NCBI GenBank assembly: GCA_009780175.1
Contig: WRAO01000001.1
Coordinates: forward strand, 1-64,000
From: Oscillospiraceae bacterium
Lineage (GTDB): Bacteria > Bacillota > Clostridia > Oscillospirales > Oscillospiraceae
DNA length: 64,000 bases
Reading direction: 5' to 3'
Position numbers and translations under genes: made by a program. The notes under the pieces were generated by a model. It made no database searches and had not been told where the DNA came from. It worked only from the letters and a program-made list of their open reading frames with translations. Every line of letters starts with the position of its first letter. Positions within the stretch are counted from its first letter, which is position 1. Below are positions 29,868 to 55,433 of this stretch, in pieces.

Positions 29868-29916
29868 GGGTTTTTGTCCTTGCTCTTTATTTTTTCTCTA
29901 CCATTTTACTTTTTGG

Positions 29917-30347
29917 GCCTGCGGCTCGCTTTGCTCGTTGCGCTGAGGCGCCTTACTTTTTGCATCGCGCAAAAAGTAAGCAAAAAAGCGAGTCAAGGGC
30001 TGCGCCCCTGACAACCCCTGTTTGACTTTTGGTTTGTGGGCGTTTCGGGTTTGGGGTTCCGCCTGCCGGCGGAAGTGGGGCCGCTTTAGGGCGTGTGAAT
30101 TGTAATGCGGCAGGTGCGATTGAATGTGCGGTGGTTTTCGCACCGCATTCCCTTCCGCCGGGCGAGGCGGAAGCTGTGACGTGCGATCCGCTGTGCAGTA
30201 AGGTTAAAAGGAGGAGATTTTCAAGAGAAACCATTCGGTTTCTCTTGAATTGTTTTTTGCCTACTTTTTGCCAACGCAAAAAGTAGGTCGCCTTCGGCGA
30301 CACGGAGCGTTAGGCCTGCTTGGCCAAAGAGAAACATTTCTATAGAA
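29917..30347 (+). repeat. Large palindromic intergenic repeat, copy A
   Basis: About 430 bp filling the gap between pcrA and upp, without a credible gene. Positions 29917-29962 are identical over 46 bp to 55021-55066 in copy C. Further shared blocks are the GCCGGCGGA-containing segment (about 30060-30095), CTCCGCC-type GCCGGGCGAGGCGGAA (about 30155-30175), and the right arm with hairpins AAGAGAAAC/GTTTCTCTT (30222-30248) and CTACTTTTTG/CAAAAAGTAG (30261-30286). The right end (AAAGAGAAACATTTCTATA) matches the ends of copies B and C. Its nested inverted repeats suggest a MITE-like element. Confidence 0.8.
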
Positions 30348-43942: not shown

Positions 43943-43998
43943 GGCGATTCTCCGTTTGTGGATTTTTTCTTATTATACAAGATTTTCCTGGTTTTTGC

Positions 43999-44262
43999 TA
44001 TAGGGATATTTCTATTGGCCCGACGGGCCGTAGGCTGTTTGCCCTGCCGGGCGGGCCTTCTTTTTGCTTCGCCAAAAAGAAGCAAAAACGCGATTCATAG
44101 AGAAACTGTGTTTCTCTTGAAAATCTCTTTCTTTTGACTTTGCACTCGTGGTCGTTCAAGGCGTGTGGTTCCGCCTCGGCCGGCGGAGGGGGATGTCGCT
44201 TTAGGGCGTGGGGGTTGTTGTGCTGTGGGTGCGATTGCATGTGCGGTGCGTGTCTGTGGGGT
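43999..44262 (-). repeat. Large palindromic intergenic repeat, copy B (truncated)
   Basis: The left end (TATAGGGATATTTCT...GGCC) is the inverted form of the right ends of copies A and C. Then come a CTTCTTTTTG/CAAAAAGAAG hairpin (44058-44083), the AGAGAAAC/GTTTCTCT hairpin followed by TGAAAATCTCTT (about 44097-44132), the GCCGGCGGAG block and TGTCGCTTTAGGGCGTG (about 44166-44211). It ends abruptly near 44262 in the 3' end of the glucan synthase gene, so the second half is missing. Confidence 0.75.
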
Positions 44263-54969: not shown

Positions 54970-55020
54970 GTGTAGGGCGGATTCTGTATCCGCCCTCCTT
55001 TTCTCTATATTGTTTTATTA

Positions 55021-55433
55021 GCCTGCGGCTCGCTTTGCTCGTTGCGCTGAGGCGCCTTACTTTTTGTCTTAACAAAAAGTAAGCAAAAAACAATTCAAGA
55101 GAAACTGCGTTTCTCTTGAAAATCTCTTCCTTTTTTGATTTTTGGCTTGTGCGCGTTTCAGTTTTGTGGTTCCGTCTGCCGGCGGAGGTTTATGTCGCTT
55201 TAGGGCGTACACGTTCTTGTGCGGTACATGAGACGAATGTGCGGTGGATTTCGCATTGCACTCCCCTCCGCCGGGCGAGGCGGAACCACACGACTTTTGT
55301 GCGCACAAGATAAACGTCAAAAGGAAGAGATCTTTAAGAGAAACCAATCGGTTTCTCTTAAATCTCCTTTTTTGCCTACTTTTTTGACGAAGCAATAGGC
55401 CACATGGCCTAAGAGAAATATCCCTATGGAGAA
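55021..55433 (+). repeat. Large palindromic intergenic repeat, copy C (most complete)
   Basis: About 410 bp separating khpA from rimM. The left arm (about 55053-55136) and right arm (about 55319-55400) are imperfect inverted copies of one another, and each contains two local hairpins (ACTTTTTG/CAAAAAGT; AAGAGAAAC/GTTTCTCTT). The centre has a second inverted pair, GTTCCGTCTGCCGGCGGAGG (near 55170) and CTCCGCCGGGCGAGGCGGAAC (55266-55286). The first 46 bp are identical to copy A. No ORF of its own. The right end supplies the ribosome site of rimM. Confidence 0.82.

What the first reader, a model, noticed from the sequence alone, without database searches (positions are those of the whole stretch)
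55021..55433. Three-copy family of large, nested-palindrome intergenic elements
Copies at 29917-30347, 43999-44262 and 55021-55433 share blocks in the same order: a 46-bp identical start in A and C, ACTTTTTG/CAAAAAGT hairpins, AAGAGAAAC/GTTTCTCTT hairpins, a GCCGGCGGA-TGTCGCTTTAGGGCGT core, and an end with ATTTCT and GGCC. In copy C the left arm and right arm are inverted versions of each other over about 80 bp. There is no ORF, and all three lie between genes. This fits a non-autonomous MITE-like element or a very large REP-type structure. I do not recognise it as a named family.
Basis: seen in the sequence. Interest (0 to 1): 0.75.

Follow-up and report, generated by a model that had tools for sequence, protein, structure and literature searches.

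The report
Mobile repeat with folded knotted ends
This bacterial genome holds 66 detected pieces of a repeat, up to about 400 bases long and with no consistent protein, built from one or two facing arms; arms that match the same model occur in dozens of related genera, and it is likely a mobile DNA element that an unidentified enzyme would recognise by its predicted fold.

Summary
A, B and C belong to a family with 66 pieces (29 two-armed, 37 one-armed) found in 244 kb, window included, of this 1.88-Mb draft genome. Each arm is a chain of hairpins. In one (H1) the loop is complementary to the segment just after a CAAAAA run, a pseudoknot topology that covaries between copies and genera. A model of the arm matches 61 of 300 genomes and 37 of 106 genera drawn from the family, and 7 of 391 genomes drawn from the class. 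Shape is conserved more than sequence. Stems are almost purely Watson-Crick (6 G-T in 2,546 pairs, against 14 in 436 in terminator hairpins), which points to DNA rather than RNA. Some orthologous sites in congeners are empty, others shared, and arms lie in phage contigs, so it is likely mobile. Target-site duplications and association with Y1 transposases were not found; short REPs stand beside it in a congener but rarely here. The enzyme is unknown. Best reading: a non-autonomous mobile element with shape-defined ends; the paper searches listed no description.

The parts
55016..55246 (+). copy C, left arm (outer hairpin, H1, H2, core, inner end ATGTGCGGTG)
   Evidence: left-arm profile hit 2-229
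55266..55419 (+). copy C, right arm (inverted)
   Evidence: right-arm profile hit 2-151
55056..55083 (+). copy C, H1 (stem S1), CTTACTTTTTG / CAAAAAGTAAG
   Evidence: sequence; covarying stems across copies
55094..55120 (+). copy C, H2 of the left arm; with the T-run on the minus strand it is terminator-like
   Evidence: sequence, scan
55333..55362 (+). copy C, H2' of the right arm; terminator-like on the plus strand
   Evidence: scan
55168..55186 (+). copy C, core GGTTCCGTCTGCCGGCGGA, pairs with the right-arm core in the predicted fold
   Evidence: pattern hit, 1 mismatch, fold
55414..55429 (-). copy C, outer end motif CYATAGRGATATTTCT
   Evidence: pattern hit, 1 mismatch
29912..30132 (+). 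copy A, left arm
   Evidence: left-arm profile hit 2-228
30152..30320 (+). copy A, right arm (inverted)
   Evidence: right-arm profile hit 1-168
29952..29991 (+). copy A, H1 (29952-29980) with loop bases TCGC 29965-29968 complementary to GCGA 29988-29991
   Evidence: sequence, loop-segment test
30330..30345 (-). copy A, outer end motif
   Evidence: pattern hit, 2 mismatches
43998..44248 (+). copy B, single arm from outer end (43998-44013) to inner end GTGCGGTG (44248)
44057..44093 (+). copy B, H1 (44057-44082) with loop TCGC 44069-44072 complementary to GCGA 44090-44093
   Evidence: sequence, loop-segment test

Best explanation
The three copies belong to a large family of repeats without a consistent protein that is likely a non-autonomous mobile DNA element whose two facing arms would be recognised as folded single-stranded DNA by an enzyme acting in trans, not identified here. 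Shown: the unit is an arm of about 170-240 bp with an outer end, outer hairpins, H1, a CAAAAA run, a segment complementary to the H1 loop, H2 and a core, and it occurs singly or as tail-to-tail pairs; matches to a model of the arm occur in 37 of 106 genera drawn from the family, and two facing arms were read in 14 distant loci. Shown: the H1 stem and the loop-segment complementarity covary, and G-T pairs are nearly absent from the stems. Inferred: selection acts on a DNA fold (ssDNA hairpin or cruciform with a loop-to-segment contact). Inferred: this fold marks the ends for copying or moving, as hairpins do in REPIN and IS200/IS605 transposition (recalled), and one-armed copies arise either as monomer insertions or by breakage at the palindrome centre. 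Predicted side effect: the outward-facing terminator-like hairpin of each arm would make an inserted copy a two-way transcription stop.
For: Copy number: 97 matches to copy C with 40 of 87 candidate places scored; core 57 against 1 reversed-control hit; outer end 26 against 1; 96 arms in 66 pieces. Mobility: the khpA-rimM site of C lacks the element in G002 and G003, and the upp-helicase site of A lacks it in G003. Of 7 distinct sites with both flanks found in G002, 6 lack it and 1 is occupied; in 2 of the 6 (A and C9:55878) more than 1.1 kb lies between the flanks. Three viral contigs carry an arm, beside terminase and portal genes (L375) and a major head gene (L377); L376 repeats the L375 flank. 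Fold: copy C z-score -11.5, A -8.1. Covariation: H1 stems CTTC/GAAG, CTAC/GTAG, TTAC/GTAA, ATAC/GTAT, GTAC/GTAC, CTCC/GGAG. Loop-segment complement: 72 arms of four congeners 3.63 against 2.57 shuffled, maximum of 1,000 shuffles 3.19; 36 arms of other genera 4.17 against 2.07, maximum of 2,000 shuffles 3.14. DNA level: G-T 6 of 2,546 pairs in element stems against 14 of 436 in 36 terminator-type hairpins, Fisher p 3e-8.
Against: Shared sites: of 21 G000 pieces with only one flank matched in G002, 10 have a G002 element within 1.5 kb of that gene; the G002 set held was enriched in element loci, but some insertions may be old and inherited. No target-site duplication: longest direct repeat between flanks 5.65 against 5.49 shuffled, 93 of 300 shuffles reach it, 17 elements. 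No transposase found: ORFs between five neighbouring pairs of copies look like ordinary cellular genes by eye (no family search). Y1 genes are no commoner in genomes with the element (7 of 17) than without (6 of 18). No movement was observed; all empty sites are between species, so loss is possible. Copy C itself has a weak loop-segment match, and in G000 alone 5 of 1,000 shuffles reach the observed value. Low G-T could partly reflect homogenisation of palindromes rather than selection.
Confidence: 0.52

Rival explanations
1. A giant REPIN-like element moved by the genome's RAYT (Y1) transposase, with each arm a grown REP.
For: Tail-to-tail inverted doublets and singlets as in REPINs (abstract of PMC3116915). 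A Y1-like match in G000 and a sub-cut-off one in G001. Small REPINs sit at the orthologous khpA-rimM site in G002 and upp site in G003. In the G002 sample 6 of 11 copies have a REP within 350 bp, and 8 of the 9 REPs face inward; a random position has a REP within 350 bp upstream in 9.6% of draws.
Against: In G000 GTAG-tagged hairpins are not enriched in the 244 kb (25 against 45 in the reversed control), and only 6 lie within 200 bp of the 66 pieces, 1 inward and 5 outward. Y1 genes in 7 of 17 genomes with and 6 of 18 without the element; 12 of those 18 are shown as negative, the other 6 are not among its positives but may not all have been drawn. No GTAG tag is seen in the outer ends.
Confidence: 0.18
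2. An ordinary MITE, a deletion derivative of a DDE-type insertion sequence, with terminal inverted repeats.
For: No consistent protein, 150-600 bp, intergenic, many copies, outer end motif CTATAGRGATATTTCT at 26 places in G000.
Against: No target-site duplication. Outer ends differ between congeners: CTATAG in G000, ACGTTGG in G002, CCTTGACC in G001. In other genera the H1 loops of the two arms differ in 14 of 14 two-armed loci, in L346 by one base. No insertion sequence with these ends was seen, but no full search for one was possible.
Confidence: 0.12
3. A multi-copy structured non-coding RNA or portable two-way transcription terminator kept by selection for its RNA.
For: Pseudoknot topology with an A-rich linker, typical of RNA (recalled). 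Terminator-like sites in C (4 against 0.7 in shuffles) and A (5 against 1.1), some of them outside the arms. Convergent 16, divergent 7 of 58 contexts.
Against: G-T pairs nearly absent. No promoter-like site in A or C. No Rfam family above its gathering score over an element; the sub-threshold hits in C are miRNA-precursor models and one plasmid sRNA model. The convergent:divergent ratio does not differ significantly from the window's 11:11 (p 0.23).
Confidence: 0.13
4. Half-elements are breakage products of long palindromes (cleavage at the hairpin tip), not a separate mobile monomer. This can be true together with any of the other explanations.
For: By my reading 14 of 25 left-only G000 pieces stop at ATGTGCGGTG, next to the palindrome centre, and 10 of 13 right-only G002 loci begin 5-13 bases after the centre motif.
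Against: The three left-only G002 loci stop earlier, at query 209-218, while the centre motif starts at 243, which centre breakage does not predict.
Confidence: 0.4

Closest known systems
REPIN (inverted REP doublets) with RAYT transposases
   Same: Inverted doublets and singlets, intergenic, fold as hairpins, non-autonomous, high copy number
   Different: Arm is 170-240 bp with several hairpins and a loop-segment contact instead of a 20-40 bp tagged hairpin; no GTAG tag in the arm; no link with Y1 genes found
TIR repeats of TIRYT genes (RAYT-like genes flanked by long inverted repeats, PMC3733652, passages seen)
   Same: Repeated inverted arms thought to be moved by a Y1-type enzyme
   Different: No Y1 gene seen between arms here; shape rather than sequence is shared
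Bacterial MITEs such as Correia/NEMIS, RUP, BOX (names recalled; review PMC10969869, passages seen)
   Same: Short, protein-free, intergenic, stable folds, possible terminator effects
   Different: No target-site duplication signal; ends not near-identical in sequence across the family
Integron attC sites (recalled)
   Same: Folded single strand recognised, structure conserved more than sequence
   Different: Paired inverted arms dispersed in the chromosome; attC core boxes were not searched for

Membership tests
MITE | short and without protein-coding capacity | tested here: met
   no consistent ORF in 29 two-armed copies
MITE | near-identical terminal inverted repeats | tested here: not met
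   G000 has a degenerate outer motif, weaker at left ends; H1 loops of the two arms differ in 14 of 14 two-armed loci of other genera, in one by a single base
MITE | target-site duplication | tested here: not met
   17 elements, no excess over shuffled flanks; exact ends are uncertain
MITE | partner insertion sequence with the same ends | tested here: inconclusive
   no transposase seen among ORFs between 5 neighbouring pairs (by eye); no whole-genome search was possible
REP/REPIN | inverted doublets and singlets, hairpin fold | tested here: met
REP/REPIN | GTAG tag at the foot of a 20-40 bp palindrome | tested here: not met
   outer ends; REPs near G000 pieces
REP/REPIN | RAYT (Y1) gene as mobiliser | tested here: inconclusive
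   Y1-like gene present in G000 but no association over 35 genomes, 7 of 17 against 6 of 18
Rfam structured RNA family | match at gathering score | tested here: not met
   window (only a tRNA elsewhere) and 15 related loci (none)
IS200/IS605 derivative | element ends resembling those of a resident IS200 | tested here: inconclusive
   IS200-like ends (label recalled) lie inside or beside some copies and look different by eye; no alignment was made

The most novel reading that the evidence does not exclude
A family-wide class of bacterial mobile element whose ends are specified by a conserved DNA fold, a hairpin whose loop pairs with the segment behind an A-run (a DNA pseudoknot), so that the two ends need not share sequence with each other or with relatives, implying an unknown shape-reading transposase.
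Probability: 0.35. Interest if true: 0.85.

Novelty: new variant of a known kind. Interest (0 to 1): 0.62.

Why it matters
If the fold is the recognition signal, this is a mobile element defined by DNA shape, spread over dozens of genera yet nearly invisible to sequence comparison (blastn with copy C finds it in 2 of 40 genomes, own genome included; the arm model finds it in 61 of 300 genomes drawn from the family). It would point to an unidentified trans-acting enzyme that can be sought by gene co-occurrence, and it would explain contig breaks and odd intergenic hairpins in genomes of this family.

Tried and rejected
REPs as the element's ends: rejected for G000; in G002 REPs do stand beside 6 of 11 copies. 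Y1/RAYT as mobiliser: not supported. Core pattern in viral contigs: 2 hits, chance by eye. Phage and plasmid records by blastn: no match. Second viral pattern: none. Autonomous copy between neighbouring arms: none seen. Inverted repeats outside the ends: not in excess. Papers: the listings (titles and abstract openings) of five topic searches and one on Faecalibacterium/MITE terms (87) showed no description of this element, and a search with sequence words had no hit (86); subscription journals and preprints are not held.

Rows dropped and limits: the G-T count for other genera used 34 of the 41 arms (duplicates and weak arms left out); laid out 11 of the 14 two-armed loci (L346, L358, L362 left out; L364 is one hairpin read on both strands). 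Minimum stem score was 8 and 7, and allowed loops differed; elements were masked in G000 but not in G002. The genome search scored only the best 13-40 candidate places per genome, so copy counts are lower bounds: searches show at least four further G000 places (C8:11013, C8:54716, C17:17, C22:11268) outside my catalogue. On the other side, C25:53 and C28:13486 share a flank and may be one copy at two contig ends. Model R1 holds only 10 base pairs because the automatic alignment shifted H1, so it leans on sequence as well as structure.

Full report
What was reported and what is there. All three are real. A and C are two-armed imperfect palindromes of about 400 bp; B is a single arm. Folded as one strand, C reaches -189.6 kcal/mol (z -11.5) and A -208.7 (z -8.1) against dinucleotide shuffles.

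Copy number. The window lies in an unnamed draft genome, G000 (1,878,405 bases, 33 contigs, 92.55% complete). Copy C finds 97 matches with 40 of 87 candidate places scored. The core GGTTCCGCCTGCCGGCGGA has 57 hits with up to 3 mismatches, 40 of them exact, against 1 for the reversed pattern. The outer end CTATAGRGATATTTCT has 26 against 1. Profiles of the left and right arm, run on 244 kb (the window plus stretches around these hits), give 96 arms grouped into 66 pieces: 29 with both arms, 25 left-only, 12 right-only, spanning 17.4 kb. A few of the 66 are fragments of one interrupted copy, two share a flank at contig ends, and at least four further places seen lie outside the catalogue. Several contigs begin or end inside a copy.

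Anatomy. Read from outside in, an arm has an outer end, one or two GC hairpins, hairpin H1 with a T-run/A-run stem, (G)CAAAAA, a short segment, hairpin H2 (AAGAGAAACC..GGTTTCTCTT or an unrelated GGGGCTNCGCCCC hairpin at the same place), a stretch that pairs with the other arm, a core, and an inner end. Two-armed copies are two such arms tail to tail. By my reading 14 of 25 left-only pieces stop at ATGTGCGGTG and run into unrelated sequence; two run on into the right core, two end with the contig, and the rest stop elsewhere or run on a few bases. In the congener G002, 10 of 13 right-only loci begin 5-13 bases after the palindrome centre. I cannot decide whether half copies are inserted monomers or products of breakage at the centre.

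Spread. blastn with C sees only 2 of 40 genomes, G000 itself and G002. The G002 element as query finds matches in all four congeners, but 8 of the 10 listed G003 matches fall in REP sequence that flanks the query; the two in the element (C3:60282, C16:44) are found again by the arm model, with a third. G002 is a named record in the public collection: Oscillospiraceae bacterium isolate Lab288P1bin3, WRAK01 (lengths of two contigs agree with G002). A covariance model R1 of H1-CAAAAA-H2 matches 61 of 300 genomes and 37 of 106 genera of the family at E 1e-5, and 7 of 391 genomes of the class at E 1e-6, 5 of them outside the family. Eleven distant loci were laid out: 440-1,005 bp from arm to arm, two facing arms, interiors that differ between genera; the two longest (L335, L339) may hold more than one unit.

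Shape, not sequence. In H1 the stem varies with compensation: CTTC/GAAG, CTAC/GTAG, TTAC/GTAA, ATAC/GTAT, GTAC/GTAC, CTCC/GGAG (the table registers some stems two bases off). The H1 loop is complementary to the segment after the A-run: TCGCC/GGCGA, TCGCA/TGCGA, TCACC/GGTGA, CGTG/CACG, GTTGA/TCAAC and others. Over 72 unique arms of the four congeners the mean longest complement is 3.63, shuffled 2.57, maximum of 1,000 shuffles 3.19; in G000 alone 5 of 1,000 shuffles reach the observed value, and G001 alone is uninformative because its arms agree. Over 36 unique arms of other genera it is 4.17 against 2.07, maximum of 2,000 shuffles 3.14, with 28 of 36 at 4 or more. The order (stem strand, loop, stem strand, A-run, segment) is that of an H-type pseudoknot. 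The loops of the two arms of one element differ in 14 of 14 two-armed distant loci, in L346 by one base.

DNA or RNA. Scoring stems by Watson-Crick pairs only, so that G-T and A-C are penalised alike, element stems hold 1,694 Watson-Crick, 6 G-T, 8 A-C and 17 other pairs in G000, and 817, 0, 2 and 2 in 34 arms of other genera. A like procedure on 36 terminator-type hairpins of G000 and G002 gives 414, 14, 3 and 5. G-T share 6 of 2,546 against 14 of 436, Fisher p 3e-8; G-T to A-C p 0.013. An RNA under selection would be expected to keep some G-U pairs, so I read this as selection or homogenisation at the DNA level. That step is an inference.

Mobility. The khpA-rimM spacer, site of C, was read in G002 and G003: both lack the element, and G002 has a small REPIN there. 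The upp-helicase spacer, site of A, in G003 likewise holds only a REPIN; G002 has another gene between upp and the helicase, and G001 is rearranged at both sites. Protein names rest on Pfam: KH_KhpA-B, RimM, UPRTase, UvrD helicase, GH94. Over the G002 sequence held, 7 distinct sites have both flanking genes; 6 lack the element (2 with more than 1.1 kb between the flanks) and 1 is occupied in both species. Of 21 further pieces with one flank matched, 10 have a G002 element within 1.5 kb of that gene; the set was enriched in element loci, yet part of the insertions may be shared by descent or fall in preferred places. Three viral contigs carry an arm; in L375 it lies between terminase and portal genes, in L377 beside a major head protein, and L376 repeats the L375 flank. 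I take this as likely mobility; direct movement was not seen.

What moves it. No target-site duplication. No transposase was seen between neighbouring copies (by eye only). A Y1 transposase is the natural suspect for hairpin ends. G000 has one Y1-like gene over the family cut-off only with its neighbours in frame, G001 one below it, and G002 a Y1 gene at a contig end, IS200-type by recall. Across 35 genomes Y1 genes are about equally common with and without the element, 7 of 17 and 6 of 18, p 0.73. In G000 only 6 GTAG-tagged REPs lie within 200 bp of the 66 pieces, 1 inward and 5 outward, and REPs are not enriched in the 244 kb (25, reversed control 45). In the G002 sample, which is rich in REPINs, 6 of 11 copies have a REP within 350 bp and 8 of 9 of these face inward, so a link with REPINs in that species is open. 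The enzyme stays unknown.

Effects on the host. In G000, 58 pieces with usable flanks lie in 35 tandem, 16 convergent and 7 divergent spacers; the window's own gene pairs are 42, 11 and 11, and the convergent:divergent difference is not significant. In C both arms carry an H2 followed on its outward strand by a T-run, in A likewise; terminator-like sites number 4 in C (shuffles 0.7) and 5 in A (shuffles 1.1), some of them outside the arms. A two-way stop is therefore predicted, untested.

Known or new. No Rfam match over an element; below the gathering score only miRNA-precursor models and one plasmid sRNA model are hit. The abstract of PMC3116915 and passages of PMC3733652, PMC10969869 and PMC2267715 treat REPINs, TIRYT repeats, MITEs and stem-loop families; none of the passages seen describes arms like these. 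The listings of the paper searches (empty) showed no paper on this element. I file it as a new variant of the non-autonomous structured mobile repeat, not as a member of the MITE or REPIN families, since a defining feature of each was tested and not met.

Noticed in passing
L264:1234-1536 and upstream (G000 C2) and L265:1462-1953 (G001 C3): RAYT-like genes with a pair of inverted GTAGGG-type REP hairpins inside or within the reading frame region of the gene itself.
   Followed up: no
L013, L090, L112 (G000) and L269, L270 (G001): A structured insert, 68 bases by my count in L013 and L270, sits at the same point of the H1' loop in some copies of both species; sequences differ, length and place agree.
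   Followed up: partly
L085 near 1200, L263 end, L287 near 580: IS200/IS605-like ends (label recalled) lie inside or directly beside large elements.
   Followed up: no
G002 contigs C1-C3, 400 kb: Dense REPINs: 46 inward-facing REP pairs within 150 bp against 1 outward-facing.
   Followed up: partly
window 44201-44248: Element B supplies the last codons and the stop of the 2,478-aa GH94 gene.
   Followed up: no
window 54972-54995: A GTAG-tagged REP hairpin stands just left of copy C, in a spacer where G002 has a whole REPIN.
   Followed up: partly
L310 about 760-860: Another palindromic repeat built on TGTAGAAT/ATTCTACA downstream of upp in G002.
   Followed up: no
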